This document shows positions 4,540 to 60,945 of a DNA stretch of 64,000 nucleotides, piece after piece (position 1 is the first letter of the stretch; each line of letters begins with the position of its first letter). Origin of the DNA: Bolinopsis microptera (lineage: Eukaryota; Ctenophora; Tentaculata; Lobata; Bolinopsidae). The notes under the pieces are model-generated. The model had not been told where the DNA came from, made no database searches, and worked only from the letters and a program-made list of their open reading frames with translations. The stretch spans positions 1,886,028 to 1,950,027 of the forward strand of contig NC_087079.1 of NCBI RefSeq assembly GCF_026151205.1, given 5' to 3'. A program made the translations under genes and the position numbers.

Positions 4540-4553
4540 AACTTTGCCATCAT
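4536..4553 (-). promoter_or_regulatory. Tiny upstream ORF overlapping the MICU-like start
   Basis: On the minus strand an ATG at 4553 opens a five-codon frame (MMAKL) whose TGA stop overlaps the main ATG in the shape ATGA (4539-4536). Such overlaps allow termination-reinitiation; whether it is translated is unknown. Confidence 0.5.
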
Positions 4554-4561
4554 GTGCCAAC

Positions 4562-4590
4562 CTGGAAATATAAAATTCTAATTATTACAA
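4562..4590 (-). promoter_or_regulatory. Splice acceptor 22 nt upstream of the MICU-like start
   Basis: Read on the minus strand, TTTTATATTTCCAG precedes the 5' UTR that begins at 4561. No upstream exon is seen. It faces a second acceptor for the divergent neighbour only 136 bp away, which makes a trans-splice acceptor plausible. Confidence 0.55.
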
Positions 4591-4681: not shown

Positions 4682-4697
4682 TTAACCATATTTTCAG
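4682..4697 (+). promoter_or_regulatory. Splice acceptor 9 nt upstream of the CCDC24-like start
   Basis: TTAACCATATTTTCAG ends at 4697. The exon starts GATGTTTTGATGG, where a two-codon upstream frame ATG-TTT-TGA (4699-4707) ends on the first base of the main ATG (TGATG). A trans-splice acceptor is the simplest reading, but an ordinary 5' UTR intron is not excluded. Confidence 0.55.
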
Positions 4698-4706
4698 GAT
4701 GTTTTG

Positions 4707-5708
4707 ATGGCGCTGAGTCAATGGTCACCGTACGAAGTACCTCAGAGCCTTTGGGCTGTGATAGAATTGTATGCCCCCACAGTTGAATTGTCAGAAATCA
4801 AGCACATTATTGGAGATGACCTGATTGAGCAATCTAATGAGCTGTTCGAAGAAATTTATTTGTTGCTAGACATTTGGCAGTCAGAGGCACAAGAACCTGC
4901 TCCAATTAAGAAAAAAGACAGTTTACCTGAATCTCCCTTCTTGAGAGAGCAATTTGTATCTCGAATACAGCAATTTGTTGGTAATCTAGATGCTACGAAA
5001 AATCATCTTTTGCAGAGTTTCCTAAATGAGAGAAAGGAAGTTTATGAGTATGCAACTCAGAAGGCCAAGAGACCCAGCACCTCAGACTCCAGTAATGGGC
5101 GGTTAACTCCCTGCAGGTCTGTAACAGGGAAGAAGTCATCAACTTCTACTGACCTCTCTCTGTACAGAGACAGTATGTCTGCTTTTGAAATCGACAAGAT
5201 CGTGACTGATATTCAGGCAGCATTTCGTGACGAGCACAGTGTGTTGAAAGAAGATATTGAGTTTCTTCACAGTGCAATTCAAGATATTCACAGTGAAAGA
5301 ATAGATCAAAATCCTCAGGAGCCAACATTAAACGATCTGAAGCTGTTTGCTGATGATTTGGAGAAGAAAGTGATTGACTTATCGCAGCCAGTATTTGCTA
5401 GTCTGGCTGCGAAAAAACCACAATCTCCACAACTAAAAGCATTGCCAAAGATACCTCGAAGAGGAGGCGCCGAAGATGAGTTGAAAAAGTTACCTTCTTT
5501 GCCAAGTGGCACAAGACAACTTTCCTGGAGACAAAGAACGCTGAAGAAGGTTAACATAACAACAAATCAAGAAACGTTCATGAACGATTTGGAGCTCAGA
5601 GGTGGATCCCCATCTGGTTCTAAAGAAAGACTTCTCCGACCTACGCCCCCTCCTAAACCACCTCGTCCAGCATTCCTTCAAAGTGGCGGGCGCACTAAAC
5701 AGAACTAA
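4707..5708 (+). CDS. CCDC24: CCDC24-like coiled-coil protein
   Basis: A 333-aa protein starting at ATG 4707 (the codon before it is TTG). The N-terminal helix SLWAVIELYAP...IKHIIGDDL and the central helical block DKIVTDIQAAFRDEHSVLKE through EPTLNDLKLFADDLEKKV match, in order and spacing, the two conserved segments I associate with vertebrate CCDC24. The C-terminus is disordered and Pro-rich with RPTPPPKPPRP, a potential SH3 ligand. The function of CCDC24 is not well established, so none is assigned. It is divergently paired with the MICU-like gene and may share a promoter in the 136 bp between their acceptors. The coding region is a single exon. Identification rests on recalled family features, not a search. 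Confidence 0.72.
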   Translation: MALSQWSPYEVPQSLWAVIELYAPTVELSEIKHIIGDDLIEQSNELFEEIYLLLDIWQSEAQEPAPIKKKDSLPESPFLREQFVSRIQQFVGNLDATKNHLLQSFLNERKEVYEYATQKAKRPSTSDSSNGRLTPCRSVTGKKSSTSTDLSLYRDSMSAFEIDKIVTDIQAAFRDEHSVLKEDIEFLHSAIQDIHSERIDQNPQEPTLNDLKLFADDLEKKVIDLSQPVFASLAAKKPQSPQLKALPKIPRRGGAEDELKKLPSLPSGTRQLSWRQRTLKKVNITTNQETFMNDLELRGGSPSGSKERLLRPTPPPKPPRPAFLQSGGRTKQN

Positions 5709-37619: not shown

Positions 37620-40600
37620 ATGATGTTCCAATTGCCCCCTCTAAAAGTCAACCTCCCCAAACCTAAACACAGAAAACAAGGTAAAAACACCACGTGACTC
37701 CGGGTAATAAACACGTGATGCTTGAGTGTTTTCTTGTTATTGAAACGTGAATCTGGTTAAATAACCTTCACTTTAACAATGCCTTCTTGTAGACGAATCA
37801 GTTCACCACGTCTTTCAACCCACTCAGTTATAAATCTTCTTCAATATAACAGCCACTGTCTGTGTTGGAAGTGTGACACGATAATGGTAGAAATAAGAAG
37901 GTAATGGTCAATAGAGGAAATGAAATATTCATGAATAATACCAGCTATATTGTCCCCTGCAGAGGTAGTAACAGAGAAGGTAATGGTCAATAGAGGAAAT
38001 GAAATATTCATGAATAATACCAGCTATATTGTCCCCCTGCAGAGGTAGTAACAGAGGACGGAAGAAGAGTGAAATGTTTGAGAAGAGACACCTACCTCGA
38101 CATGAGTCAGATGGCTCTCACCTTGTTCCCTAAGATGGTCCTCAGATGTGACGATCTAGAGACCCTCATATTCAACAGGAACTTCCTCAGGTCAGAAACA
38201 CTTCTGTGCTGGAGTATCTGGACTAAAATTACATAATCTGCGAGACTTGAATTTAATAAAATGACATAACCTCCGATACTTTAAATTAGGACGCTAACTG
38301 TTATAAATTGACAGCTCTCTGCTTTACATATTTAGGTGATATCAAGAATTGCTTGTAAGTGGTAGTTTTACTAATGTCATGTTTAAACAGGGAGATACCG
38401 AGGAAGATATCCCGTTTAGATTGCCTCGAGCTGCTGGATCTGTCGTACAACAGGTTCAGCGAGTTTCCTGAAGAGATCCTCACAGTGACCTCTCTGAAGG
38501 AGCTTGACCTTAGTCACAACAACATCTCATCTATACCTATTGATATCAGATATCTCAAATTTCTCAAGGTAGAAACATTTCAAGCCAGTGATTTATAAGA
38601 AGAAAAAAAAAGAACGTTTTAGTCATTACTTAATAATATTTCTTTTTAAAAAATGATTGACCATGCAGCACACCACAGTTTATTTTGATAATTAATTTTA
38701 CTATTTCATTAAACTCCCTGCAGGTTCTAAACTTAAGTAACAACAGAATTAAGAGACTACCCAACAATCTAAAGAACCTTCTCAGTCTAGTTTGTCTGAA
38801 CGTTTCTTGCAACAAGTTAGTCTACACAAACTAGAATACCGACCTGAATCTTTAAGTTGTCTTTTCGTCATTATGTCAATTCTTTACCTCAGTTAGTCCT
38901 TCCCCAAACCCTAACTCGGACCACAGGCCACATCTAGACCCCTCATTCCTTTTTCCCGTGATTACACTTTCTTAACATAGATTCTAATCAGGTTGGACGA
39001 GTACCCCTTGGCTCTATGTTCGAGTTTCGTACATCTACAAATATTAAAGTGCAGCCACAACTTTATAGTGGAGCTGCCGTATGAAGTGAGTGTCAGTTCT
39101 ACATAAATTGTACATTGTACATTGTACATTGTACATTGTACATTGTACATTGTACATTGTACATTTTACATTTTACATTTTGTACATTTGTACATTGTAC
39201 ATTGCACATTGTACATTGTTAATTGCACATTGTACATTGTACATTGTACATTGTACATTGTACATTGTACATTGCACATTGCACATTGTACATTGTACAT
39301 TGCACATTGTTTGTAGAGATAAGTTGTAGACTCATATAAGTGCAACTGTAGGTTTGGGTTATGAGAATGTCAACTGTAGGACTAAGATAAGCAAGATAAG
39401 GTCAAGTGTTAGATTGAGTCGGGTTCCAGCTCCACATCTTTATAATGTTTTTATCTTCATTTTATCTACATTCAAACAGATAATAAATATAAAGCGTAGG
39501 ATCAGTAATTCTTATTCCTGTTCATCGTTCTTATATTGCAACTGTTTGTCATGTTTATTGTTTATCATATTTTTATTCCATGGAAAAAAGTTAAAAATTA
39601 GCAAATTGTTAATAACCTGCTAATCTCTCAGATAATAATGTTACCTGAGCTGTGTTTGAAGCCGGACGCTGTGGACTTCAGTCACAACCCTCTAACCTTC
39701 CCCCCAATTGAAGTGTGCAACAGGGGATTTGAAGCTATGAGGAACTGGATAGAACCAAAGTGGCGGAATCTCAAGGAGTTTAAAAGGAGGAAGATTGTTG
39801 CTAATACTCTCAAATTTACTAAGACAAATATGACCAGGGTGAGATATTACCACAGTTAATGAACTTTACTACGGGCGGGTGGAACAAATTCTACTTAACA
39901 CGTGACAGCGACGGATTTTGTAAACTGATTAAACTTGAATTTTAACACACTCATCATAGTAAATATTATTTGTTATAAGTTTGAGTATCATGAAATATTC
40001 ACAGACAAGTATGTGGGACAAAGCACCCTCGGTGAATAGCAGCAAGGCAAGCTCTACTAACTTGCAGAAGATTCAAGATACTTCCGGATCAAAGAAATCC
40101 CAGAAGAGATCGAACGAAACTAAAGCTGACAAAACAGCCCAGAAAACTCCAAAAACGTCAGAATTAGCAAAGTCAAAAGGAGGCAAGGTGGTGAAGACGA
40201 CGAAGAAGAAGAAGACTTCATCTGTGGCACAGCTTCTCAAGAATGATAATCTGGAGATACTAAGTGGCGAACTAGATGACAGCAGTCGAGCTACTCTGGT
40301 CGAGGTATGGGCTCACTATCAGCACTTTCTATACTAGTCTAATCTGAACTAGATGATAGCAGTCGAGCTACTCTGGTCGAGGTATGGGCTCACTATCAGC
40401 ACTTTCTATACTAGTCTAATCTGCTAGATAGCAGTCGAGCTACTCTGGTCGAGGTATGGGCTCACTATCAGCACTTTCTATACTAGTCTAATGTCCTTTA
40501 GGAACTAGATGATAGCAGTCGAGCTACTCTGGTCGAGGTATGGGCTTCTTTACTACCAGCACTTTCTATACTAGTCTAATGTCCTTTAGGAACTAGATGA

Positions 40601-43600
40601 TAGTAGTCGAGCTACTCTGGTCGAGGTATGGGCTCACTATCAGCACTTTCTATACTAGTCTAATGTCCTTTAGGAACTAGATGATAGCAGTCGAGCTACT
40701 CTGGTCGAGGTATGGGCTCACTATCAGCACTTTCTATACTAGTCTAATGTCCTTTAGGAACTAGATGATAGCAGTCGAGCTACTCTGGTCGAGGTATGGG
40801 CTCACTATCAGCACTTTCTATACTAGTCTAATGTCCTTTAGGAACTAGATGACAGCAGTCGAGCTACTCTGGTCGAGGTATGGGCTCACTATCAGCACTT
40901 TCTATACTAGTCTAATGTCCTTTAGCAGTCGAGCTACTCTGGTCGAGGTATGGGCTCACTATCAGCACTTTCTATACTAGTCTAATCTGCTAATAGCAGT
41001 CGAGCTACTCTGGTCGAGGTATGGGCTCACTATCAGCACTTTCTATACTAGTCTAATGTCCTTTAGGAACTAGATGATAGCAGTCGGGCTACTCTGGTCG
41101 AGGTATGGGCTCACTATCAGCACTTTCTATACTAGTCTAATCTGCTAGATGATAGCAGTCGAGCTACTCTGGTCGAGGTATGGGCTTACTATCAGCACTT
41201 TCTATACTAGTCTAATCTGCTAGATGATAGCAGTCGGGCTACTCTGGTCGAGGTATGGGCTCACTATCAGCACTTTCTATACTAGTCTAATCTGCTAATG
41301 ATAGCAGTCGAGCTACTCTGGTCGAGGTATGGGCTCACTATCAGCACTTTCTATACTAGTCTAATGTCCTTTAGGAACACTATCAGTCGGGCTACTCTGG
41401 TCGAGGTATGGGCTCACTATCAGCACTTTCTATACTAGTCTAATCTGCTAATGATAGCAGTCGGGCTACTCTGGTCGAGGTATGGGCTCACTATCAGCAC
41501 TTTCTATACTAGTCTAATCTGCTAATGATAGCAGTCGGGCTACTCTGGTCGAGGTATGGGCTCACTATCAGCACTTTCTATACTAGTCTAATCTGCTAAT
41601 GATAGCAGTCGGGCTACTCTGGTCGAGGTATGGGCTCACTATCAGCACTTTCTATACTAGTCTAATCTGCTAATGATAGCAGTCGAGCTACTCTGGTCGA
41701 GGTATGGGCTCACTATCAGCACTTTCTATACTAGTCTAATCTGCTAATGATAGCAGTCGGGCTACTCTGGTCGAGGTATGGGCTCACTATCAGCACTTTC
41801 TATACTAGTCTAATCTGCTAATGATAGCAGTCGGGCTACTCTGGTCGAGGTATGGGCTCACTATCAGCACTTTCTATACTAGTCTAATCTGCTAATGATA
41901 GCAGTCGAGCTACTCTGGTCGAGGTATGGGCTCACTATCAGCACTTTCTATACTAGTCTAATCTGCTAATGATAGCAGTCGGGCTACTCCGGTCGAGGTA
42001 TGGGCTCACTATCAGCACTTTCTATACTAGTCTAATCTGCTAATGATAGCAGTCGGGCTACTCTGGTCGAGGTATGGGCTCACTATCAGCACTTTCTATA
42101 CTAGTCTAATCTGCTAATGATAGCAGTCGGGCTACTCTGGTCGAGGTATGGGCTCACTATCAGCACTTTCTATACTAGTCTAACTAGATGATAGCAGTCG
42201 GGCTACTCTGGTCGAGGTATGGGCTCACTATCAGCACTTTCTATACTAGTCTAATCTGCTAATGATAGCAGTCGAGCTACTCTGGTCGAGGTATGGGCTC
42301 ACTATCAGCACTTTCTATACTAGTCTAATGTCCTTTAGGAACACTATCCTATATGGTTGATATCTATTATTATTACATAGGCTAATCAAGCCTTATCAAG
42401 CCTAATCTAAGATTCTAGGTATGTATAACGATGAGTTCTTGTCAGGTTTATGGCGACGGTTCGAGTCCGGCCCTTCATCAGCTGTCCCCCCTCCCGGACT
42501 CCTGGACTCCAGCTGTAACCAAGACTCCCGGACTCGATACTCCGGAAGGAGAAGCCTGGTCTGGGGAGGACAGGGGGTATCTATCTGATGGGGACGTTCA
42601 GGAGTCGGTAAGTAAGGTGCTGAACCAAGTGGGAGGTGGATTATAATGTGTTATTCACATGAACTGCACTGAACAACTTGTATCTTATCTCAAAAACTCT
42701 CGATCATGAGAGGAAATGTCTTCAAGCTTCCAATATAACCTCACACCTGGCAAGGTTGTTAAATACGTCAAATTTTCGTGAAATAATACGTATTCGGTTC
42801 TAATAAAGAATACGTCGTAATACGCCGTAATACGGTAATTTCTATGGATTGTTAAATACGTCCACGAATACGCCATAATACGCCGTAATACGCTGATTTG
42901 TCAAAATTAAACATTACAGCTGCGCGCCACCCTCATCATTGATCATGCATTAAAGGAGTGCAGTTATACATGATAACTTAAATTTGTAATCAAATTTCAT
43001 GGATAATCCGATAAGCTAACATTTTTTGCGAAATTATCAATTACATATTAATACATATTTAATGATTTTGATGTTCAGAATTTAAAGACCGTCCGCGATC
43101 AATTTCAACTTCAAGCCACACCTTTTCGTAATACGTCAATTTTCGAGGATTAATACATATTCGTATTCCAATACGTATTCCCTCCTAATACGTATTTAAC
43201 AACCTTGCACACCTGTATCTACATCTGAGTACATCATAGCTATTAAAAAGTTAAAATACTCTTACAGGAACTACTAGATCTGATCAACCAGTCGTTCGAG
43301 CCCCCTGACCTGAGCCTGCCAGACTCAATGCTCAACATGAGTTGTAGTGGGGGAGGAGGTGGAATGTTAGAACACTGGCTTGGTAAGTTTATTAAGTATT
43401 TATTATCTGATATTTTAATTTCTTCTAATTTCTATTCACTGCATCATTTTTGAAAGCAAATCCCTTCTCAAAAAGGGATATAATGACAATTTGCTCGATA
43501 GGAAAGAATAATTTATGTAAAAGGTTACAATATTTAATAGCCAGATCCATTTATCACTCCTTATAGTTATATGTATGGTATGTTTGTAGTTAGATACGAA

Positions 43601-46600
43601 TGTTTTAAGTTGGATCCAACGTTTAAAAGTTCATTAATCAAGGTTCCACTTTGTTATTGTACTTTTATCGTTAGATTTAGCTTGATGTTATCGTTGCTAA
43701 CCCTTATAGAAGAGCTGATCTGTGTTTATTATTTTAGTATAAATTTTCAATTTGGAATCACCAAGTAATACTCAAAGATTAGGTTCCATGTTTTAAACAA
43801 TAAAAATAACGGTATTACGTATTATATAATATATTTAATATTATGCCCTTAAACACACAATTACAATCCCTTCAATAACAGTATGATTGTATCATGAATT
43901 GTGTTGTGCCGTTGAATTACGCTATCATGAATTGTGTTGTCCCGTTGAATTACGCTATCATGAATTGTGTTGTGCCGTGTAATCACGCTGTCATGAATTG
44001 TGTTGTCCCGTTGAATTACGCTATCATGAATTGTGTCGTGCCGTGTAATCACGCTGTCATGAATTGTGTTGTCCCGTTGAATTACGCTATCATGAATTGT
44101 GTCGTGCCGTGTAATCACGCTGTCATGAATTGTGTTGTCCCGTTGAATTACGCTATCATGAATTGTGTCGTGCCGTGTCATCACGCTGTCATGAATTGTG
44201 TTGTCCCGTTGAATTACGCTGTCATGAATTGTGTCGTGCCGTGTAATCACGCTGTCATGAATTGTGTTGTCCCGTTGAATTACGCTATCATGAATTGTGT
44301 CGTGCCGTGTAATCACGCTGTCATGAATTGTGTTGTCCCGTTGAATTACGCTATCATGAATTGTGTCGTGCCGTGTAATCACGCTGTCATGAATTGTGTT
44401 GTGCCGTTGAATTACGCTATCATGAATTGTGTCGTGCCGTGTAATCACGCTGTCATGAATTGTGTTGTCCCGTTGAATTACGCTATCATGAAATGTGTCG
44501 TGCCGTATAATCACGCTGTCATGAATTGTGTTGTCCCGTTGAATTACGCTATCATGAATTGTGTCGTGCCGTGTAATCACGCTGTCATGAATTGTGTTGT
44601 CCCGTTGAATTACGCTATCATGAATTGTGTTGTGCCGTTGAATTACGCTGTCATGAATTGTGTTGTCCCGTTGAATTACGCTATCATGAATTGTGTTGTG
44701 CCGTTGAATTACGCTATCATGAATTGTGTCGTGCCGTGTAATCACGCTGTCATGAATTGTGTTGTCCGTTGAATTACGCTATCATGAATTGTGTTGTGAC
44801 GTTGAATTACGCTATCATGAATTGTGTTGTACCGTTTAATCACGATGTCATGAATTGTGTCATGAGGATATCACATAAGAGTATCTCAAGTACTAATAAT
44901 AAGATGAGGACATAAATGATTTTAATTAATACCCCTCGATGTATTATTAAAAAGACAATAAATACTAAAGTTATGCCCTATTCTGACAGCTGATAAAATG
45001 CAAACCCCATTAATTGTCCCTACACGTACCTTCTACCGTTGTGATAGTTATGCTTTGATCATCTTCTCAAGAACAGCTGTGCTAGACTCTAATTCAGGGA
45101 TAGACTTATTGCATCTCTTAGTGTCCAGTATAAGCCGCTGGAGGAGAAGGTCCTTATCGTACAGTTCCTTCCTGGTGGCTTCCCTCACGTTGATACAGTT
45201 AGCGTTCAGTTTCAGGAGTTGCTCTCTGGCAGTCTGGACTTTCTTTTCCCAGGTCGTTACCTGGAACTTCAGTTTGGCGAGGATGTTGTCTACTTTGTTC
45301 ATCTCGGTTTCATAGATCTTCTTGACTTCCTCCCTCTCGTTTTTGTTGTGCTCGACTTCGTTCTTCAGCTCCTCGATCTGAAGTCTGTGCACCTCAACTG
45401 GGTCACACTTCTTCTCAATGTTCACCTTCTTGGTGCACAACTTAGACTCCTGGAACTGCAGCTTCTGCTTGTGACGTCTCTGGGTATCGTAGTCTTCTTC
45501 CTGTGTCTTCTTCTTCTGCACGTGTTCTTCTTTCAGACTGGAAACTTTAGATTCCAGACCCTTGTTCTTCTCCACCAAAGCTGCTGTCTCCTCCTTCAAG
45601 GAATCTACATCCAACTGTAGCTTCTCGATCTCAGCCTCAGCTGCACGCTTGTCCTCGATCGTCTTGGTTCGGGTGTCCTCGGTTTCACGGTCGATGGCCC
45701 TCTTCTGGAGTCTGAGCTCCTCGTGGGTTGCTTTCAGTTGGTCGAGTTCAGAAGACATGATGGTGTTTTGAAAGTGGTACCTATAAAGTTGGAGATTTAG
45801 TTGTGGTTCAACGGTAAAAGTTTATAACTATAGTATCTGAGAATTAACGGACAATTTAAACGTGGATTTGCAAATCTATTATCAAAAGTACAGAAAGAAG
45901 AAAGGAAACGAATCATATTAATCAATATCTACGAATACTGCTGAAAAGATTGAAAAATGATATGCTGCCTCTATCTTACAAGAGTATTTATACTCACAAT
46001 TATTAATTGGTTAATAACAATCCCCCGATACAGCCTTCTTCTGTGTCACCCGCAATTTATTTTAAATAATTAATAAATAACAAATTTAATTGCCATTCAA
46101 TTTTATAATTATAGTCCTGAATAGTATGAATGGGTCGTTCCTTCAACTTGTCTTGTCTGAAATGATGACCAATCTATTTAATCAACATCCTAATTAATTG
46201 CTATTCAGAAATAGCGATAATTACCTTTTATCACTACCAACACGGAAATAAACCTCATTATCATTATGGAGTGCGCTATTTTAGGAGTTCAAGCAGACCC
46301 ATTAGGACAGTGGACAGTTATGGGATACAATGCATGATCGGATACAGGGGATGAGAGGGAGAAGGACGTATTAGTCGAATAAAGGACAATATAGTACAGG
46401 GTTGAAGAGTCTGCGGCTGGGGAGGGGGGGGGGGGGTTAGGGTTAGGTGAAGTCACTAAAAATTACAACACCTCCTACAGTTTACCTTGAAAAGGAGGAG
46501 ACCAATTTTAGGGGCCACATTCATTTAACAATCTAACTTCTGTATAGTGTATGACCAGAGATACTCACACAATCAATTGTTCTCACTTTGTTGCACGTGC

Positions 46601-49600
46601 AGGAACGGTACAGAGCATGACGATGTCTGATCCCACCATGACACGTGACCCGTCGTGTGCCAGCACAGAGTTTGAGGGGAGCAGTCAGTTAGTTAACGCT
46701 TTTACCCCCTTCTCTGATGTCAAGATCACCAAGTAAGGATGTTCTTGCTGTTATTATGAAAATATAGTTTATGTTTAGAATGAATAAACTAATAAAAGTA
46801 AACTGAATTATATCTTACCGTAGATAAAATAGTACTTCTTATATTTCATTTTATAAAACGAAACAAAAAACCCCGTACCTGCCAGGAACTCGCCAGAAGA
46901 TAGTGGAGGAAGTGAAGAAGAAGAAGAGGATGACGAGGAGGATGAAGAGGATGTATCTCAGTCCTATCGGGAGGAACTGTTAGGAGTTGGGGACATGTCC
47001 CGACATTCCATCTCTACTCCAGGTAAAGGGTTGGGTGTGTTCGGATCTCCTCAAAGTTTAAACTTTGAATTGAAGGTAGAGATCGGTTTTCAAAGATGTA
47101 AAAACTTGACTTGTAAATTAGTTCAAGGCTGATCAAGTCTATTTCTAACGTCGGTAGGTTAATGTGGATTTGTTAGTATGTACTTTTAAACTATTTGTTA
47201 ACGACGGGGCTGAATTAAACTCACTACAGAACTAGATAGATTGTCTGTCATCTTCTCTGAAGACGATGCTAAACCATCCCAGCAAAGTAGGTTCGCTTGT
47301 TGTCATGGTGACAATGTAGTGTTACTATTTGTTGTTATTTACGACAAGTGAAACAATGTTGTTATTTTTTCTTCAAAATAAGTGAAACATTGCTGTTATA
47401 TCTTCTAATTATGAAGCTGAAAGATTTTGACTCCATTGAGCTGCTTACGTGTTTCGGGTCTAATCTTATTTTTAATATTTTGTGAACACGATAGAATTGC
47501 TTACTGCTTAATTGTGCTCAGTTCGTCTTCCATTGTTTTTCAAAAAGGACGGAATTCAATTATTTTTGTGGTTGTTTAAGGGGGGGGGGGTCAATGGGTA
47601 TTTTTTTGTGAAACTTGATTTCGAGATAGTAGTTGACCAACAAACTAGGACCAGTGACCGAACTTTTGAGGGGGTCCCGGACCCCAACCGCCAAACGGTG
47701 CGCGCAGGGCAGCCACGCCCATATTTGGTCCAAATTAGGCCCAATTTAGCCAAATACCCTGAACATACCCAAAACCCAGGTTTATGGTGCTCTACTTGTA
47801 GCTAGTGGTCTCCTGAACTCGTATATGAAATTTCATCAAGATTGGACAAAAAATGACTGAGTTATGAGCCAAAAACCATATGCCCATATTTGGGCATACG
47901 CACCAAATTTGGTAGATTTCGTCCCATAAATTGGTCAAATATCAATATTTTTGGATGAGACTTACTTTATATGAAAGGTAAGCCTAAACTACATATTCTC
48001 TGTAAGTTATAGCTTTATATCTGTTTAAATGTGGATACTAAGGCGAAAAAACCACAAAAAATGAACTAAATTGCCCATATCTCGGTTCGCGATATTCGCG
48101 GAATTGATCTCACCAAAATTGTAACAACTCAATCAGTTTTCAAAATTTTTGCATGAAATTTTTGAAATCGACTCGAAATCGCATTTCGACCTTATTTTAA
48201 GAACGGATTTTTGATTTAGGCCTCAAAAAAAATTTGGCGGCCAAATTCTGAATTTCTGTAATATAATTTTGGAATTTGGCCGCCAAATTTTTTTTGAGGC
48301 CTAAATCAAAAATCCGTTCTTAAAATAAGGTCGAAATGCGATTTCGAGTCGATTCCAAAAATTTCATGCAAAAATTTTGAAAACTGATTGAGTTGTTACA
48401 ATTTTGGTGAGATCAATTCCGCGAATATCGCAAACCGAGATATGGGCAATTTAGTTCATTTTTTGTGGTTTTTTCGCCTTAGTATCCACATTTAAACAGA
48501 TATAAAGCTATAAATTACAGAGAATATGTAGTTTAGGCTTACCTTTCATATAAAGTAAGTTTCATTCAAAAATATTGATATTTGACCAATTTATGGGACG
48601 AAATCTACCAAATTTGGTGCGTATGCCCAAATATGGGCATATGGTTTTTGGCTCATAACTCAGTCATTTTTTGTCCAATCTTGATGAAATTTCATATACG
48701 AGTTCAGGAGACCACTAGCTACAAGTAGAGCACCATAAACCTGGGTTTGGGGCATGTACAGGGTATTTGGCTAAATTGGGCCTAATTTGGACCAAATATG
48801 GGCGTGGCTGCCCTGCGCGCACCGTTTGGCGGTTGGGGTCCGGGACCCCTTCAAAAGTTCGGTCACTGGTCCTAGTTTGTTGGTCAACTGCTATCTCGAA
48901 ATCAAGTTTCACAAAAAAATACCCATTGGCCCCCCCCCCCTTAATAATGTAAAGTGTTTAGGAAATCGCTACTTTTGCATGAAAAAGTCGCAATTATTTG
49001 CGTGGATGTGGTTTTGTGGGAGATTGTTCTGAAAAACTTTGTTTTGTTTTTGTGGTCTGTCCAACATGTGCCTATTCATTCGTTCTAAAAAACTTGCTTT
49101 AGAGAAATCATTTTTAACATGTTATTATGAGATTAAAATGAAGCAATTTCTCTGAACAGCCGGACAAAAGGAGGAGGTTCGGGGCAAAGTTAAGAAACAG
49201 GCCAAAATAATGCGAAGAAGCAGTGTCATGTCTGCTGTCTCTACTATCTCCGAAGCAAACACCATCACCTCCACTAAGGTAACACCATCACCTCCACACA
49301 CATCACATATCTAACGATCAAATAAATAGTTAATGTGCTGATCCATGATCTCAAAACTTATCTAAAACAGTTATGTATCACGTGACTTACTGTTAACAAG
49401 CTCCCTATCTGTAGAAACAACACATTACAGGGCACGAAAAAGAAGAAGAGGAAAAAGAAGAAGAAGAAGTTGACGAGACAAGAATCAGAGCTAGAGATTT
49501 ACTCCAGGATCCCCTACAAACCCCTTCTGATCGCACCCCGCATGGTTCCTACTACGCGGGGCCTAAAAACATGGGCTTACTTTAACGAACCTAAATCCTG

Positions 49601-52600
49601 CTATCTGGTTAGATCTTAGATATTATATCATTGATAAAGACAATTCCGTTTATTGTGAATTTTGTTTATTGACCATCTGGAAATATGCGGTCATCGTGGC
49701 CTTCAGTTCTTATTTCACCTATTTAGCTGTATACTTGTATAGTACATTTCTGAAATTATCATTGATTGATTGAGGAGCACTACCCGAAGGCATTACTCGG
49801 CACTAACGCCTTAAAATCTTTAATTACAATCAAATATAAATATATGCACACAATGTCATTCATCCATTAAGAATACAAATCCCATAATACAGTGACTACA
49901 GTGATTATGTCAAGCATTAATTGTCAGCGGTCCTCCTCTGTCAACTTTTAATAATACTTTAACTCTTGTATTATTATTTCATCTCTCAGTATTCTCTCTG
50001 TATTTTAACCTCTCCAAGTTACCTGTATTCCTCAACCTGTCAGATTGACAATATGGCAGACATATCCTCCTCTGGGAAGCGAGTAACGTTTGGATCAGAC
50101 GAGTTCATGAACTCTGCCCCCTCTACAAAGAGTCTGTTAACTGACTCCTGTAGAGCTAACAACTCTAGCAACTCATCACTAGGTGGGACCTCAAGACTCT
50201 CTATTTTACAATCTATAATCTCACACAGATAGCTAATTTTATTTTGATTGCTTTTTTTCTTTTGTTTTTGATACTTTTTAAGATTCGAACACGGAAATTT
50301 TGTAACCGACAAGTGAAAGTGTTGACATTGTTGAGATAAATTACGTTTTCAGACCGTTCTGCAAGTGTACACAGTATAGAATCCAATCAATCACAGATGC
50401 TTGGGTAAGTTAATAAGATAAATTATCATTTATTAAACTTTAACGATTGAACAAATCAGTCAAAAGAAACACTTTATTCTAGAAGTCGCTTTCAGTACCA
50501 TGCAGAATTATTTTCACTCATGTTCCGTTGTTCGTTCGAAAAACCCAAAAGGTACAAAAATTTAATTGCTATTCACTATTTTTATATTAATGGTAAAAAG
50601 TAGATGATATCAATCGATTCCGTTGGGCCACTTGTGATGTTGAGGATATTCCGTTAAATATCATCGCATTTGAATGAATCAACCGAATAAGAATGAATTT
50701 CATTTTCCCAAAAAAATGATAAACATTGATTTGGGACACGGCTCGTCGCTCCCTAAAAGAGGGCATCCTTCTGATTTTGTTCCACTCTGTGAATCATCTC
50801 CAGGCTCTTGAGGGTCTGACTCATCTTCTTTGGGCTTTTTATCGGGTTCATCTCCTTTCTTTCCACAAGAAAAGTCACATTTCTTGGCCGTCTTCTCCAA
50901 TTTCTTGCAAACCTTCATGGCTTTCTTCTTCAACCTTCCTTTTCCGGCAGCACAACCAAGCTTTGACTTGAAACCACTACTGATACATTTCTTAAACTTC
51001 TTAACAGTCTTCTGACACTTCTTATTGACCTTACACTCTATCAAAACAACAGCTGCTGAAATGAAAACCAGTACCCAAAACGATCCCGGCATTTGGGTGT
51101 CTGAGTCACTAAAAGTAGAAAACTGACTTCAACGAATTGAATTTACAATGAAGATATCATTAAATGTGTGTAACTCTTCATTCTTACTTTTTAAGTGAGA
51201 ACAGACCACCCCGCATGAGAATTTGCTAATTGCTATTTATTGACGTCGCCAATTATCATTGAAACTTACTTAGTTAATATAACTTTGACAATAGTTGTCA
51301 ACAGCCGACGAAATATGGTCCAGAATGCAGATGTACATATTATGTTATAGAGCTAGAAAAAGTCTAATTTAGATTTTAGAGGTGCTGCTAACCTAACTAA
51401 TCCTAACCAAACACATCCTTCAGAGCCAGTATGAGCAGTTACTCACAGTTCAGTACACCCCCTTCCTCTCCATTCGCCTTCGACTCTCAACACTCGGCAT
51501 CGCCTCACACTGGACCTCGAGATATTACCTCTACTTCCTTCTCTGTTGCTCAGGGACTCTGGAGGAAGTCTAGCAAGTGAGTCAGTTTACTGGAAAACTG
51601 CCAAACAGTTCATCATTCATTACCCGAAAGAAAAAATAATATTGATCACGATAGATGTTGACATTAACAGATTTTAAGTCCAACTCCAAGTCGTTGTATA
51701 CCTATAATTATACCCTTGAAATCCTCTCCTCAGTTTAAAAAAGAGGCCCTCCTCCCTGCCAGCCCCAAAACAGCACACCTGGACATCAGAAGAGCTACAA
51801 AAGTTCATATTCCGACCCTCAGACCTTATGATACCTCCCAAGGTGCTGATATCGTACCTGAAGCTGGACAATGAAGCGTTCCAGGCCAACTTGATACTGA
51901 AACTTGTTAACACTTTAGAGGTTGGTGTTTTTGAACAGGATTTAACAGATCTTTTGTCAGTTTTATTTTTGATTTCATGTTTATTGGACTTGTGAAAATG
52001 AACTCGTATCTAGCTATTGTACAAATAGTCTCGGAGGGCACTGGGCAGAATTTTAACTTAAAAAACCCTCAGTTGAATGGGCTGGCGGAGTGTGTTTGTG
52101 ATTTAACTACGAAAGAAGAATATGACTTCGAGGAACTCGGTTACTATGACTGGTTGAATGAAAAAGTCAGTTCTTTTCACCGCCACATTTTTGAACAGAG
52201 CGCTTGAATAAACTTTTTAAAATTAAATAAATACTTTTACAATACGGGACTCCAAGTTCTTGCCCCACATTGTATTGGTTAAACACTCGCATATTTCACC
52301 TATTATAACCAGCTACACAGGTAGAAGAGTGTGAGTATATCCTGGTGATGATGTCTAAACACTATGTTAACTCCCTGTCCATCCTAACTAAACTGGACGG
52401 TATAACTCCGCCTCACTCAGCCTCTCACAGGGGCTCCCCTTACATCACTGCAGCTGATATCACCAGATGGGGACTTAGTCCCAGCGAGGTAGGGTACTTT
52501 GTCAAACTTAATCACATTATCAACGAGAGAGGTTTTATCATAGAACGGAAGTTCGTAGTGATCCGTCAATATTTCTATATAAAAGACAGTATTCTTATTG

Positions 52601-53148
52601 GTAAACTTAGAAAGACGTTTTGCTTGCAAGAGGACTGTGTGATATCCCTGCATCTACCCAAGTTAAGATTACTTAAGTAGCACTCCCCAGGTTCAGCGGA
52701 GGTTTATCCCAGTGCTGAATGATGACATGGAGCAGATACAGACCCCTTCCTGGCTCCAACAATTACCCTACTTCGTACCTAGCGAGATATGTGAGCTCGG
52801 TTATCACGTGAGTCTTAGAACTCTTGCGTTTCTTCTGACTTCTGGGCTTGCTTCTCTGAAATAGTCTCGATCAAGCACCTTTCTTTTTATAGGTAGCTTC
52901 CAGAATTTGTTCTTCGCATCTTTGTCACAGTTATTGTGTGATGTGTCCCTTTTTTGTAATGAAGTATAAGCCAAAAAGGAGGAAGGAAACTAAAAGAGAA
53001 AATATCCCAGCTGATAAGTAGAGACTGCAGAGAGTCAGTGATGATCCCCAACATATTCGAGACTAGTCAGAGTAGTGGGCTGAACACAGAGACAGCTGAC
53101 GAGAGCAGGGCTGACCAGCTCGTCTTATCTATGTCTGATATCGGTTAG
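37620..53148 (+). CDS. LRR protein with C-terminal SEFIR/TIR-like domain
   Basis: Exons: 37620-37680, 38043-38190, 38391-38568, 38724-38815, 38992-39085, 39632-39838, 40005-40304, 42446-42607, 43268-43382, 46603-46732, 46886-47022, 47230-47286, 49160-49278, 49431-49607, 50044-50182, 50353-50404, 51424-51576, 51734-51924, 52014-52165, 52321-52488, 52691-52807, about 52970-53148 (TAG). All but the last join keep phase. About 1040 aa. Exons 3-6 encode LRRs (LELLDLSYNRFSEFPEEI, LKELDLSHNNISSIP, VLNLSNNRIKRLP) closed by a cap (VDFSHNPLTFPPIEVCNRGF). A Lys/Ser-rich and acidic linker follows. The C-terminus reads PPKVLISYLKLD, YYDWLNEKVEECEYILVMMS, RRFIPVLND, PSWLQQLPYF, KLKEKISQLI, in the order of the SEFIR domain of IL-17 receptors and the adaptor CIKS/ACT1. 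No signal peptide or membrane helix is seen, so it is probably cytosolic. A role in innate signalling is inference. Confidence 0.72.
37901..38059. repeat. ~80-bp tandem duplication across an intron-exon border
   Basis: GTAATGGTCAATAGAGGAAA through CTGCAGAGGTAGTAACAGAG occurs at 37901 and again from 37980. The second copy supplies the acceptor used by exon 38043; the first holds a spare acceptor. Confidence 0.85.
39109..39310. repeat. (ACATTGT)n microsatellite
   Basis: Seven-base units with occasional GCACATT and TTTTACATT variants, in the intron between exons ending 39085 and starting 39632. Confidence 0.92.
40283..42345 (+). repeat. ~75-bp minisatellite carrying an exon end and its 5' splice site
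   Basis: About 27 units. Each repeats the last codons of exon 40005-40304 (GCTACTCTGGTCGAG), the donor GTATGGGCTC and about 40 bp of intron (TATCAGCACTTTCTATACTA plus GTCTAAT). Units differ in a short linker (GTCCTTTAGGAACTAGATGA versus CTGCTAATGA). Every copy preserves the donor. Confidence 0.93.
42742..43215. mobile_element. hAT-type MITE with 8-bp target duplication
   Basis: CAAGGTTGTTAAATACGT at 42751 is mirrored by ACGTATTTAACAACCTTG ending 43207, flanked on both sides by CACACCTG (42742-42749 and 43208-43215). The 8-bp duplication and CA(A/G)GGTTG-type ends fit hAT elements. The interior, about 457 bp, is full of TAATACG motifs and non-coding. It sits in the intron before exon 43268. 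Confidence 0.88.
43893..44860. repeat. 33-bp minisatellite with 66-bp higher-order period
   Basis: About 29 units of ATCATGAATTGTGTTGTGCC plus GTTGAATTACGCT, alternating with a variant carrying GTGTAATCACGCT. Units of 33 bp keep both strands open, so the 292-294 codon frames on each strand are artefacts. Confidence 0.93.
45048..45758 (-). CDS. Nested coiled-coil protein, 236 aa, family not recognised
   Basis: A single-exon minus-strand gene inside the plus-strand LRR-SEFIR intron 43383-46602. It starts at ATG 45758, 21 nt after a possible acceptor (CTTTATAG on the minus strand). Almost the whole protein is charged heptad coiled coil (for example EIEKLQLDVDSLKEETAALV and QLLKLNANCINV). It has no signal peptide or membrane helix, and it ends in LESSTAVLEKMIKA. 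Codon use and the absence of stops over 711 bp support a real gene. Coiled coils of this type occur in axonemal and cytoskeletal proteins, but I cannot name the family. Confidence 0.78.
   Translation of the reverse strand: MSSELDQLKATHEELRLQKRAIDRETEDTRTKTIEDKRAAEAEIEKLQLDVDSLKEETAALVEKNKGLESKVSSLKEEHVQKKKTQEEDYDTQRRHKQKLQFQESKLCTKKVNIEKKCDPVEVHRLQIEELKNEVEHNKNEREEVKKIYETEMNKVDNILAKLKFQVTTWEKKVQTAREQLLKLNANCINVREATRKELYDKDLLLQRLILDTKRCNKSIPELESSTAVLEKMIKA
46421..46449. repeat. Poly-G run with short TTAGGG-like motif
   Basis: A run of 12 or more G followed by TTAGGGTTAGGT. Too short to be an interstitial telomere tract. Confidence 0.6.
47576..48944. mobile_element. Fold-back element with 669-bp inverted arms, TTAA-flanked
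   Basis: Left arm 47580-48248 and right arm 48272-48940 are near-identical inverted copies around a 23-base loop. Both ends start with a G run (GGGGGGGGGG on the left, mirrored on the right) and are bordered by TTAA. There is no transposase; the frames inside are copies of each other. It lies in the intron 47287-49159. TTAA suggests piggyBac-mediated mobility, though the G-starting end is atypical. Confidence 0.88.
50700..51092 (-). CDS. Nested secreted Lys/Cys-rich protein
   Basis: A 130-aa single-exon gene on the minus strand in the LRR-SEFIR intron 50405-51423. A signal peptide (MPGSFWVLVFISAAVVLIEC) is followed by a basic domain with cysteines spaced C-x10-C-x14-C-x9-C-x3-C (GFKSKLGC, GRLKKKAMKVCKKLEKTAKK, CDFSC). 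An acidic, Pro/Asp-rich tail follows, with two more cysteines (EGCPLLGSDEPCP). The same cysteine spacing and the GF-S-LGC / LKKK / C-KLEK--KKC residues occur in the protein at 60063-60920. No known family is recognised; the final C-x3-C recalls ShK-type folds, but the spacing differs. Start: ATG 51092, 16 nt after an acceptor. Confidence 0.82.
   Translation of the reverse strand: MPGSFWVLVFISAAVVLIECKVNKKCQKTVKKFKKCISSGFKSKLGCAAGKGRLKKKAMKVCKKLEKTAKKCDFSCGKKGDEPDKKPKEDESDPQEPGDDSQSGTKSEGCPLLGSDEPCPKSMFIIFLGK
51109..51130 (-). promoter_or_regulatory. Splice acceptor upstream of the nested secreted gene
   Basis: On the minus strand TCAGTTTTCTACTTTTAG ends at 51109, giving a 16-nt leader before the ATG. 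Strong pyrimidine tract; candidate trans-splice site. Confidence 0.55.
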
Positions 53149-54036
53149 TTAGTTTGTTTCCTGTTCAGATATTGTTATATTATGTGCTTGTTTGTTTTGT
53201 ACTTGGTCCTGTCTTGTCCTGTGACTTGTCCTGCCTTGTCCCTTCCTGATATGAACTGGTTTGTTCTGTCATCTTTTATGAGTTATGTTTGGTTATTATT
53301 TAATTATGATAATAAACAAGTTGTTATTGAATATTTGATAAAATTACAATAGTTTTTTGATCGGTTTAACTTTAAGCTTTAAATATCTCTCCCCCCCCAT
53401 TAAGTTTTGTGTACAAAAGTTTACTAAGTTTGGTCGCGCGGATGCTAGGAAATACTCTTCAAGATAGAACTATAACTCAGGCTATAGAAATCTCTACACA
53501 ACTATACAAGTACTCAAGTATAAAAACCATCGCTTATTGAATAGAAGGTAAATTTATTGACATCTTGGTTATTGTTGAATTGTTGTTTGAACTCATTTGC
53601 TAGATTAACATCGTAACTTCAATGAATTCTTCTCCACGAGATACAATGTACGGCAGATATATCCTCGACCATATTATTTGCTTGTCTGCAAACACATGAT
53701 TACAAAAGCTCTTGTATTATTTTCCCAGTAGTCTATTATATTAATTAATTAACCTCAATTTAACCAGGAAATACCTAGTATGTTGCGGTCTCATTTTTTG
53801 TGTATTGATCGTTTCTTCTCTCCTTTGATGTACTTAATGTTCTTAGTTTTTTCTGATTTTCATCTTTTGTTGCTCTTTATATTTGGTCTATTGAGTCGGA
53901 AAGACCATTTCTATATCAAAATTTCACTTAATTTCATTTGATTCAAGCTTAACTCTCACCAACCATCAATCTCATTCGATTTTAACAACCAAAACTCTTG
54001 TTAGGTTAAGTTTTCAACGAACATCAGACAATAGAC
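53149..54036. other. Intergenic region
   Basis: AT-rich gap between the LRR-SEFIR stop codon and the next gene. Contains AATAAAC at about 53310 as a possible poly(A) signal. No gene seen. Confidence 0.45.
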
Positions 54037-60062: not shown

Positions 60063-60920
60063 TTAGTAGTTGAGTGTCTTGCGGCAGTATGCTGTTCTAT
60101 CTTTAATATCTCCACGTGACCATATAACCCTTCTGTCTGGAGAAGTTATCTGGTTCCAGTTTGATCCCTTAGTGTTATCCCTCATGACATGGTCATCACC
60201 CCGGTCTAGAGGTTCCTCCCAGTTGTCTCCTTCAACAAAGTCAGGCTTCTCCCAACCACTCTCCTCGACTCCAGCACATCTCCAGGTATTGTCTGAAACC
60301 ATGACCCCGTTTCCTTCTGCATCCTTCATCTCTGCTACGATACCCCAGTCACCCCCTTTGTTATGACATTTAACTGCTATGACCCGGGTGGGTGATGGAA
60401 CACTGAGCTCCGCTAGTGCCTGATAGTTCGTGTCGTTGTAGCTCTGAACTCCGTCTACGTAGATAGTCGTGTAATCGTCACAAAATACCTTTAGTGGGTA
60501 GAACTCGCAAGGCTGGTCGTTGCATTCTTGTGTCTCTTCAGCATCTCCGACACAGTTGGATCCACCGTTAGCAGGGGCTGGGTTGGAACAGCTCCTCGTT
60601 CTCTTCTGGGATCCTCCTCCGCAAGCAGCCGAGCAGTCTGACCAATCCCCGAAATCACTCCAGTTCCCATCAGTTGGGCAAGTGTAGCCACACTTTTTCA
60701 GCGCTTTTTCCAGTTTATTGCATTTCTTCAAATCCTTCTTCTTCAACTTACCATCGCTGGATTCGCAGCCCAGAGACGACTGGAAACCTTTCTCTAGGCA
60801 CTTCATGTTGTACTCCTGGATTGCCTTGTTCAGCTTTTTCTCCTTCCATGGGCACTCATCCGAAGATACAATTAACACTAAAAGTGTTAGCAAAACAAGA
60901 AAGCCGCAGATATTTGTCAT
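60063..60920 (-). CDS. Secreted Lys/Cys-rich + TSP1 + jelly-roll-like protein
   Basis: A 285-aa single-exon gene; ATG at 60920, 2 nt after an acceptor. A signal peptide (MTNICGFLVLLTLLVLIVSS) precedes a basic six-cysteine domain (about residues 22-81; C-x17-C-x10-C-x14-C-x9-C-x3-C, with KGFQSSLGC and CNKLEKALKKCGYTC). Next is a thrombospondin type 1 repeat (about 86-139: WSDFGDWSDCSAACGGGSQ, KRTRSC, QECNDQPC). The C-terminal 145 aa hold FCDDYTTIYVDGVQSYND, VIAVKCHNKGGDWGIVAE, NTWRCAGVEESGWEKPDF and a final CRK, in an order typical of galactose-binding-like jelly-roll domains. TSP1 suggests extracellular matrix or cell-surface binding. The Cys-rich domain is shared with 50700-51092. Confidence 0.85.
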   Translation of the reverse strand: MTNICGFLVLLTLLVLIVSSDECPWKEKKLNKAIQEYNMKCLEKGFQSSLGCESSDGKLKKKDLKKCNKLEKALKKCGYTCPTDGNWSDFGDWSDCSAACGGGSQKRTRSCSNPAPANGGSNCVGDAEETQECNDQPCEFYPLKVFCDDYTTIYVDGVQSYNDTNYQALAELSVPSPTRVIAVKCHNKGGDWGIVAEMKDAEGNGVMVSDNTWRCAGVEESGWEKPDFVEGDNWEEPLDRGDDHVMRDNTKGSNWNQITSPDRRVIWSRGDIKDRTAYCRKTLNY

Positions 60921-60922
60921 TG

Positions 60923-60945
60923 CTGAAAAGGATTAAGATAGATCG
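60923..60945 (-). promoter_or_regulatory. Splice acceptor 2 nt upstream of the TSP1-gene start
   Basis: On the minus strand CTATCTTAATCCTTTTCAG is followed by CAATG. Strong pyrimidine tract; candidate trans-splice site. Confidence 0.6.

What the first reader, a model, noticed from the sequence alone, without database searches (positions are those of the whole stretch)
37620..53148. LRR protein fused to a SEFIR (CIKS/IL-17R-like) domain
The exon chain joins N-terminal LRRs to a C-terminal block with KVLISY, WLNEKVEECEYILVMMS, RRFIPVL and PSWLQQLPYF in SEFIR order; the RFIPVL/P-WLQ part is the portion I recall as typical of CIKS/ACT1. SEFIR domains are known from IL-17 receptors and CIKS; an LRR-SEFIR fusion without a membrane helix would combine ligand sensing and IL-17-type signalling in one cytosolic protein. 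Domain order is read from sequence; the immune role is inference.
Basis: partly seen in the sequence, partly recalled or inferred. Interest (0 to 1): 0.85.

Follow-up and report, generated by a model that had tools for sequence, protein, structure and literature searches.

The report
Comb-jelly LRR gene beside SEFIR-like domain
In a comb jelly genome, exons for a leucine-rich-repeat protein lead, in one possible gene, to exons for a divergent SEFIR/TIR-type immune signalling domain; if one transcript joins them it would be an unusual one-protein sensor and adaptor, but an equally serious reading is two neighbouring genes.

Summary
A 22-exon plus-strand chain, 37620-53148, has GT-AG introns and agreeing phases and reads as 1023 aa without a membrane helix. 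The LRR part is certain. The C-terminal block is a divergent TIR/SEFIR-superfamily domain: SEFIR is the top Pfam family, E=0.001, but at 19.8 bits it is below the cut-off of 23; TIR_2 is second; 0 of 7 shuffled or reversed controls hit either. The ACT1 resemblance rests on one 20-residue motif. The genome is a ctenophore, a phylum with frequent spliced-leader trans-splicing. The weak link is exon 14 to 15: exon 14 has an alternative acceptor opening a frame that stops at 49583, with a higher total codon score (though a lower synonymous-codon score), and exon 15 has an in-frame ATG 9 nt after its acceptor. Skipping exon 14 still gives an in-frame fusion. I put an LRR plus SEFIR-like fusion at about 0.45 and two adjacent genes at about 0.42. 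Long-read cDNA or RT-PCR would decide.

The parts
37620..37680 (+). exon 1, start ATG, MMFQLPPLKVNLPKPKHRKQ
38043..38190 (+). exon 2, LRR cap region
38391..38568 (+). exon 3, LRRs
   Evidence: Pfam LRR_4 40.7 bits on the surrounding ORF
38724..38815 (+). exon 4, LRR
   Evidence: genome self-search finds the exon in frame
38992..39085 (+). exon 5, LRR
39632..39838 (+). exon 6, last LRR and PPIEVCNRGFEAMRNW tail
40005..40304 (+). exon 7, basic low-complexity linker ending ELDDSSRATLVE
42446..42607 (+). exon 8, linker
   Evidence: total codon score 12.9, best frame
43268..43382 (+). exon 9, linker, donor matches the consensus at 7 of 8 letters
46603..46732 (+). exon 10, linker; in-frame ATG 14 nt after the acceptor
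46886..47022 (+). exon 11, acidic linker
   Evidence: total codon score 24.2
47230..47286 (+). exon 12, linker
49160..49278 (+). exon 13, linker
49431..49607 (+). exon 14 as bridging exon (basic frame): the weak link of the fusion model
   Evidence: acceptor 6/17 pyrimidines, donor 5/8; codon score total 8.8, synonymous-only 3.2
49415..49585 (+). rival exon 14: acceptor with more pyrimidines, acidic frame ending in stop TAA 49583-49585; would end an LRR-only protein of 656 aa
   Evidence: acceptor 10/17; codon score total 15.6, synonymous-only -1.6
50044..50182 (+). exon 15; pyrimidine-rich acceptor, in-frame ATG at 50053 (possible start of a separate SEFIR-like gene)
50353..50404 (+). exon 16, linker
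51424..51576 (+). exon 17, linker
51734..51924 (+). exon 18, strand A (KVLISY) and helix A of the SEFIR-like domain (strand and helix names by analogy)
   Evidence: SEFIR model positions 1-28
52029..52165 (+). exon 19, strand B and helix B region (CVCDL...YYDWLNEK)
52321..52488 (+). exon 20, strand C (CEYILVMMSKHY); a longer form to about 52550 adds a possible helix C (YFVKLNHIINERGF)
52691..52807 (+). exon 21, strand D (RRFIPVL...PSWLQ) and strand E
53011..53148 (+). exon 22, C-terminal tail and stop; acceptor weak, other ends possible
53311..53316 (+). AATAAA, candidate poly(A) signal about 160 nt after the stop

Best explanation
The locus encodes, in at least some transcripts, one cytosolic protein of about 960-1020 aa: several N-terminal leucine-rich repeats of the SHOC2/LRRD1 type, a long charged, probably disordered linker, and a C-terminal divergent SEFIR/TIR-superfamily domain. 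Most likely action: the LRR arc binds a protein partner or ligand inside the cell, and the C-terminal domain then assembles with itself or with other TIR/SEFIR domains of the animal to start signalling, much as ACT1 does under IL-17 receptors but without a membrane receptor. Shown: the LRRs, exons with agreeing phases, the absence of a membrane helix in the chain, and a statistical match of the C-terminal block to SEFIR/TIR models. Inferred: the splice joining exon 13 or 14 to exon 15, the fold, any binding, any signalling.
For: 22 exons with GT-AG ends and agreeing phases over 15.5 kb, 1023 aa, no internal stop. Total codon score positive in the used frame in 22 of 22 exons and best of three frames in 21 of 22. 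Exons 8-13 carry donors matching 6-7 of 8 consensus letters, so they expect downstream partners. No AATAAA or ATTAAA between exon 14 and exon 15, and one AATAAA about 160 nt after the final stop. Skipping exon 14 (13 to 15) also keeps the frame, 964 aa. The synonymous-only codon score of exon 14 favours the bridging frame (3.2 against -1.6). SEFIR 19.8 bits E=0.001 and TIR_2 15.4 bits E=0.027 on the canonical C-terminal variant; 0 of 7 shuffled or reversed controls hit either; exons 18-20 without exon 21 still give SEFIR E=0.018. LRR_4 46.4 bits.
Against: The chain was picked for phase agreement. Exon 14 as a bridge has a poor acceptor and donor, and its rival frame has the higher total codon score and stops at 49583. 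Exon 15 has an ATG 9 nt from its acceptor, as a spliced-leader gene start would, in a phylum where trans-splicing is common. The synonymous-only codon score is best in the used frame in only 9 of 22 exons, near the one in three expected by chance, so the coding signal is mostly amino-acid composition. SEFIR is below the Pfam cut-off in every variant tested; for the full-length chain it drops to 14.4 bits, E=0.047; exons 19-21 alone hit TIR_2 and not SEFIR. Pairwise similarity to IL-17RA and IL-17RB is hardly above shuffles (z at most 2.01), and a profile comparison with three SEFIR sequences did not beat 200 shuffles.
Confidence: 0.45

Rival explanations
1. Two adjacent genes on the same strand: an LRR protein (exons 1-13 plus the acidic form of exon 14, 656 aa, stop at 49583) and a 361-aa SEFIR-like adaptor that starts at the ATG at 50053 in exon 15, its mRNA capped by a trans-spliced leader. 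The adaptor would look like CIKS/ACT1 in outline: disordered N-terminus, SEFIR-like C-terminus.
For: The acceptor at 49415 has 10 of 17 pyrimidines against 6 of 17 for the bridging acceptor; the acidic frame has a total codon score of 15.6 (56 codons) against 8.8 (59 codons) and ends in TAA. Exon 15: 12 of 17 pyrimidines before its acceptor and in-frame ATG at +9. Spliced leaders on 56% of Hormiphora Iso-Seq reads as a lower bound, and leader motifs in Mnemiopsis (PMC8527503, passages). Variant poly(A) words TATAAA 49835 and GATAAA 49633 in the gap. Two long ORFs in the window, 3319-4581 (-) and 4686-5708 (+), lie about 100 bp apart, so close genes occur here.
Against: No AATAAA or ATTAAA in the gap. 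An in-frame ATG within the first five codons after the acceptor occurs in 5 of 21 exons with acceptors (6, 7, 10, 15, 17), including internal LRR exons, so it is weak evidence of a start. A small weight matrix ranks the exon 15 acceptor only in the top 30.5% of AG sites. The synonymous-only codon score favours the bridging frame of exon 14. Exon 13 joins exon 15 in frame.
Confidence: 0.42
2. The gene boundary lies between exon 9 and exon 10 (3.2 kb gap holding a minus-strand ORF): an LRR gene ending near 43.45 kb and a SEFIR-like gene starting at the ATG in exon 10.
For: Largest gap in the chain, 3220 bp, with five AATAAA words; in-frame ATG 14 nt into exon 10.
Against: Exon 9 has a donor matching 7 of 8 letters and exon 10 an acceptor with 11 of 17 pyrimidines, in matching phase. 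Minus-strand ORFs inside introns are expected, since nested intronic genes are common in the ctenophore Hormiphora.
Confidence: 0.08
3. A separate question from the gene model: the C-terminal block is a divergent TIR_2-type domain, or not of the TIR/SEFIR superfamily at all, and the SEFIR label is only a chance top hit.
For: Below the SEFIR cut-off; TIR_2 is the only hit for exons 19-21 (E 0.0084); the genome has many TIR_2 matches (28, of which 22 over the cut-off), and of seven of these compared, two resemble ACT1 clearly (z 8.3 and 6.8) and a third less so (z 3.8).
Against: Two superfamily models match in the expected order in separate exons and 0 of 7 controls hit either. Direct comparison with seven of the 28 TIR_2 matches of this genome gives z at most 2.8.
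Confidence: 0.2

Closest known systems
TRAF3IP2 / ACT1 / CIKS (human; PDB 9ot1)
   Same: C-terminal SEFIR-type domain; shared motif RFIPVL-(9 residues)-P-[TS]-WLQ. That ACT1 is cytosolic is general knowledge.
   Different: ACT1 has no LRRs (general knowledge). Outside exon 21 the similarity is not above shuffles. The only PxExx-acidic/aromatic word lies inside the domain itself.
IL-17 receptors A and B (PDB 4nux, 3vbc)
   Same: SEFIR is the best Pfam family for IL-17RA and for this block; IL-17RB was not scanned in Pfam.
   Different: No membrane helix here and pairwise similarity hardly above shuffles (z at most 2.01).
Toll-like receptors
   Same: LRRs combined with a TIR-superfamily signalling domain, if the fusion is real.
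   Different: No signal peptide by eye, no membrane helix; LRRs of intracellular SHOC2/LRRD1 type; PMC11797021 (passages) reports no TIR2 protein combined with LRRs in Mnemiopsis.
LRRD1 and SHOC2
   Same: Among the best PDB matches of the LRR part: LRRD1 223 bits, SHOC2 156 bits.
   Different: No Death domain was reported for the chain by Pfam.
Placozoan SEFIR plus Death-domain protein (PMC6321704, passages)
   Same: Non-bilaterian SEFIR protein in a non-receptor architecture.
   Different: Death domain instead of LRRs.

Membership tests
SEFIR domain (PF08357) | Score over the curated gathering cut-off (23 bits) | tested here: not met
   Best 19.8 bits, E=0.001; 16.3-18.0 bits for three other splice variants and 14.4 for the full-length chain; 17.9 and 18.8 for two trimmed strings
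SEFIR domain (PF08357) | Top-ranking Pfam family for the domain | tested here: met
   First in 6 of 6 C-terminal strings covering exons 18-22 in whole or nearly so (4, 2 trimmed) and in the by-eye string; but for exons 19-21 alone TIR_2 is the only hit
SEFIR domain (PF08357) | TIR-like alpha/beta fold | not tested
CIKS/ACT1 adaptors | Pairwise similarity to ACT1 over the whole SEFIR domain | tested here: not met
   z 4.9-6.9 overall, but 7.15 from exon 21 onward alone and 1.34 without it
CIKS/ACT1 adaptors | TRAF-binding motifs in the N-terminal part | tested here: inconclusive
   No PxExx[acidic/aromatic] outside the domain; four loose [PSAT]x[QE]E words (motifs recalled)
IL-17 receptor | Membrane helix before the SEFIR domain | tested here: not met
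   Highest 19-residue mean hydropathy 1.04 in the 1023-aa chain
Toll-like receptor | Extracellular LRRs, membrane helix, TIR domain | tested here: not met
   No membrane helix; TIR_2 below its cut-off of 28 bits
LRR protein | LRR models over the cut-off | tested here: met
   LRR_14 48.7, LRR_4 46.4, LRR_8 42.5, LRR_1 32.6 bits
LRR plus SEFIR fusion | One transcript holds both | not testable with these tools
   No RNA data; splice-site and codon evidence is divided

The most novel reading that the evidence does not exclude
A ctenophore, from the lineage often placed as sister to all other animals, makes a cytosolic one-protein sensor and adaptor in which SHOC2-type LRRs are wired straight to a SEFIR-like signalling domain, with alternative use of exon 14 switching between an LRR-only decoy and the signalling fusion, in a group whose best-studied member (M. 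leidyi) is reported to lack canonical Toll-like receptors (PMC11797021, passages).
Probability: 0.3. Interest if true: 0.75.

Novelty: new variant of a known kind. Interest (0 to 1): 0.48.

Why it matters
SEFIR signalling is best known from IL-17 receptors and ACT1. PMC8353272 (abstract and passages) finds IL-17 itself no deeper than Cnidaria (its text does not name ctenophores), while PMC11797021 (passages) reports the SEFIR domain in the ctenophores M. leidyi and B. microptera without describing its protein context in the passages seen. If the SEFIR-like domain of a comb jelly sits on LRRs in one cytosolic protein, SEFIR domains were serving intracellular sensors before, or independently of, IL-17 receptors. 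The question can be settled with ctenophore RNA data.

Tried and rejected
Pfam SEFIR and IL17 models searched directly in the genome: no candidates, uninformative, since the tool's 14 controls did not ring either. phmmer of the C-terminal block against the PDB: one chance hit, E 0.68; this is uninformative, since the same program starting from ACT1 finds only ACT1 and not IL-17RA or RB, although those two find each other. hhalign against a three-sequence SEFIR alignment: seven variants scored 17.0-17.2, while the best of 200 shuffles reached 20.75, so no support. NCBIfam: no hit. Paralogues in the genome: none seen for the C-terminal block (3 matches: two are the window itself, one at E 0.945 has stops) and none for the linker (9 matches, all in the window). 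A splice-site weight matrix trained on 10-11 sites of the same chain was too small to trust and partly circular; it ranked the exon 15 acceptor in the top 30.5%, exon 11 acceptor in the top 39.0% and exon 22 acceptor in the top 40.6% of AG sites; plain consensus counts were used instead. Splice variants of exon 20 and of the C-terminal end were enumerated and some scored: Pfam prefers the canonical donor at 52488, while the pairwise ACT1 score prefers the longer exon; unresolved. Literature: searches (papers held in that library only); for the exact term LRR-SEFIR found 0 papers. None of the passages seen describes an LRR-SEFIR protein; this shows only that those searches did not find one.


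Full report
What is there. The window lies on contig C8 of a 264.65 Mb, 232-contig genome. A photoprotein sequence recalled as berovin matches 59 places at 81-91% identity, many in tandem arrays, so the animal is very probably a ctenophore. The size is near that reported for Bolinopsis microptera (1n about 254 Mb by k-mers, 13 chromosome-scale scaffolds; PMC10232365, passages); the species is my inference and was not tested.

The exon chain. Reading the plus strand gives 22 exons from the ATG at 37620 to the stop at 53148, all with GT-AG introns, agreeing phases and no internal stop, 1023 aa. An AATAAA lies at 53311. A codon score trained on 4788 codons from five ORFs of three genome loci and three window ORFs is positive in the used frame for 22 of 22 exons and best of three frames in 21 of 22 (exon 14 is the exception); 9 of 22 exons exceed the 95th percentile (12.0) of 532 stop-free 44-codon non-coding windows, although exon lengths differ from 44 codons and part of the training set is LRR genes. 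Against this, a score of synonymous choice alone is best in the used frame in only 9 of 22 exons, about what chance gives, so the signal is mainly amino-acid composition (all). Highest 19-residue hydropathy is 1.04, so there is no membrane helix.

N-terminal part. Pfam gives LRR_14 48.7, LRR_4 46.4 and LRR_8 42.5 bits, all above their cut-offs. In the PDB the best matches are LRRD1 (223 and 210 bits) and, after one plant receptor kinase (173 bits), SHOC2 (about 156 bits): an LRR arc of the intracellular type. Other LRR matches exist in the genome at 26-52% identity outside this locus.

C-terminal part. On the canonical splice variant (donor 52488, acceptor 52691) SEFIR is the top Pfam family with 19.8 bits, E=0.001 for all 24736 models, model positions 34-137 of 150; the curated cut-off is 23 bits. 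TIR_2 follows with E=0.027. Three other variants of exon 20 give SEFIR E 0.0037-0.012, and the full-length chain 0.047; two trimmed strings give 0.0039 and 0.0021. Six shuffles and the reversed sequence gave no SEFIR or TIR hit, 0 of 7; one shuffle hit an unrelated family at E 0.24. Without exon 21 SEFIR is still top (E 0.018, model 1-28, from exon 18); exons 19-21 alone hit TIR_2 (E 0.0084) and not SEFIR; exons 19-20 alone hit TIR_2 at E 0.12 and, as chance, a poxvirus family at E 0.13. Separate exons thus point to the same superfamily in the expected order. For comparison human ACT1 gives SEFIR 133 bits and TIR_2 25.7 bits. PMC13142454 (passages) treats SEFIR as the outgroup of TIR domains within one clan.

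How close to ACT1. Local alignment with human ACT1 scores 4.9-6.9 standard deviations above shuffles (0-2 of 1000 shuffles reach it), while IL-17RA and IL-17RB give z at most 2.01. Known SEFIRs are uneven under this test too: ACT1 against IL-17RA gives 8.69 but against IL-17RB only 1.86. I therefore call the block a divergent SEFIR/TIR-superfamily domain, SEFIR best, and do not file it as ACT1/CIKS. A profile comparison on three sequences gave no support.

One gene or two. For one gene: phases, donors with 6-7 of 8 consensus letters on exons 8-13, no AATAAA or ATTAAA between exons 14 and 15, an in-frame 13-to-15 join, and the synonymous-only score of the bridging frame of exon 14 (3.2 against -1.6). 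For two: the bridging form of exon 14 has 6 of 17 pyrimidines before its acceptor and a donor with 5 of 8 consensus letters, whereas an acceptor 16 nt upstream (49415) has 10 of 17 and opens an acidic frame with a higher total codon score (15.6 against 8.8) that stops at 49583. Exon 15 has an ATG 9 nt after a pyrimidine-rich acceptor (12 of 17); but 5 of the 21 exons with acceptors have an in-frame ATG within the first five codons (exons 6, 7, 10, 15, 17), so this weighs little. Ctenophores trans-splice leaders onto many mRNAs and, in Hormiphora, have many nested intronic genes (PMC8527503, passages), which makes both an internal gene start and the minus-strand ORFs inside introns 9 and 16 unsurprising. 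I judge fusion and two genes about even.

Mechanism. If fused, the likeliest mode is a cytosolic scaffold: LRRs bind a partner or ligand, the charged linker gives reach, and the C-terminal domain assembles with TIR or SEFIR domains; this genome has 28 TIR_2 matches, 22 over the cut-off. If separate, the C-terminal gene is a small SEFIR-like adaptor and the LRR gene an ordinary scaffold. No catalytic or binding step was tested. IL-17 was not found in the genome, but that search cannot show absence.

What is known. PMC11797021 (passages) reports SEFIR in M. leidyi and B. microptera, not in H. californensis, in one or very few genes, and no TIR2 protein combined with LRRs in M. leidyi. PMC12909245 (passages) counts one or two SEFIR sequences in a sponge. 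PMC6321704 (passages) describes placozoan SEFIR proteins, one with a Death domain. PMC5457136 (passages) found no ACT1 in echinoderms. The searches turned up no LRR-SEFIR protein in the passages opened. So the presence of SEFIR in two ctenophores is in print; the LRR link, as far as these searches go, is not, and it is also not proven.

Noticed in passing
40276-42329: Intron 7 is a minisatellite made of copies of the end of exon 7 plus its donor: 27 donor-like units, 6 of them complete mini-exons (acceptor, 36 nt in frame ELDDSSRATLVE, donor), so a repeat array could add 12-residue units to the protein.
   Followed up: partly
47576-48944: Near-perfect inverted repeat in intron 12, two 680-nt arms 98% complementary with 9 nt between; looks like a foldback element.
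   Followed up: no
43890-44860: 33/66-bp tandem array, most of which is open on both strands (305 aa minus, 297 aa plus).
   Followed up: no
45048-45821 (-): 257-codon coiled-coil-like ORF (by eye) on the opposite strand inside intron 9; no Pfam family over its cut-off.
   Followed up: no
50700-51128 (-) and 60063-60932 (-): Two ORFs with signal-peptide-like starts and similar Lys/Cys-rich segments by eye, the second with a thrombospondin-1-like stretch (recalled); the first lies inside intron 16.
   Followed up: no
52536-52575 and 52686-52725: The downstream extension of exon 20 (IIERKFVVI) resembles the start of exon 21 (QVQRRFIPV) by eye, hinting at a duplicated or alternative segment.
   Followed up: partly
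G000:C5:17012652-17026413 and other arrays: 15 photoprotein gene copies about 940 bp apart, each at 88% identity to the query; 59 matches listed in the genome.
   Followed up: no
L009, L012: Two TIR_2 domains of this ctenophore resemble human ACT1 (z 8.3 and 6.8), more than the window's own domain does outside exon 21.
   Followed up: no
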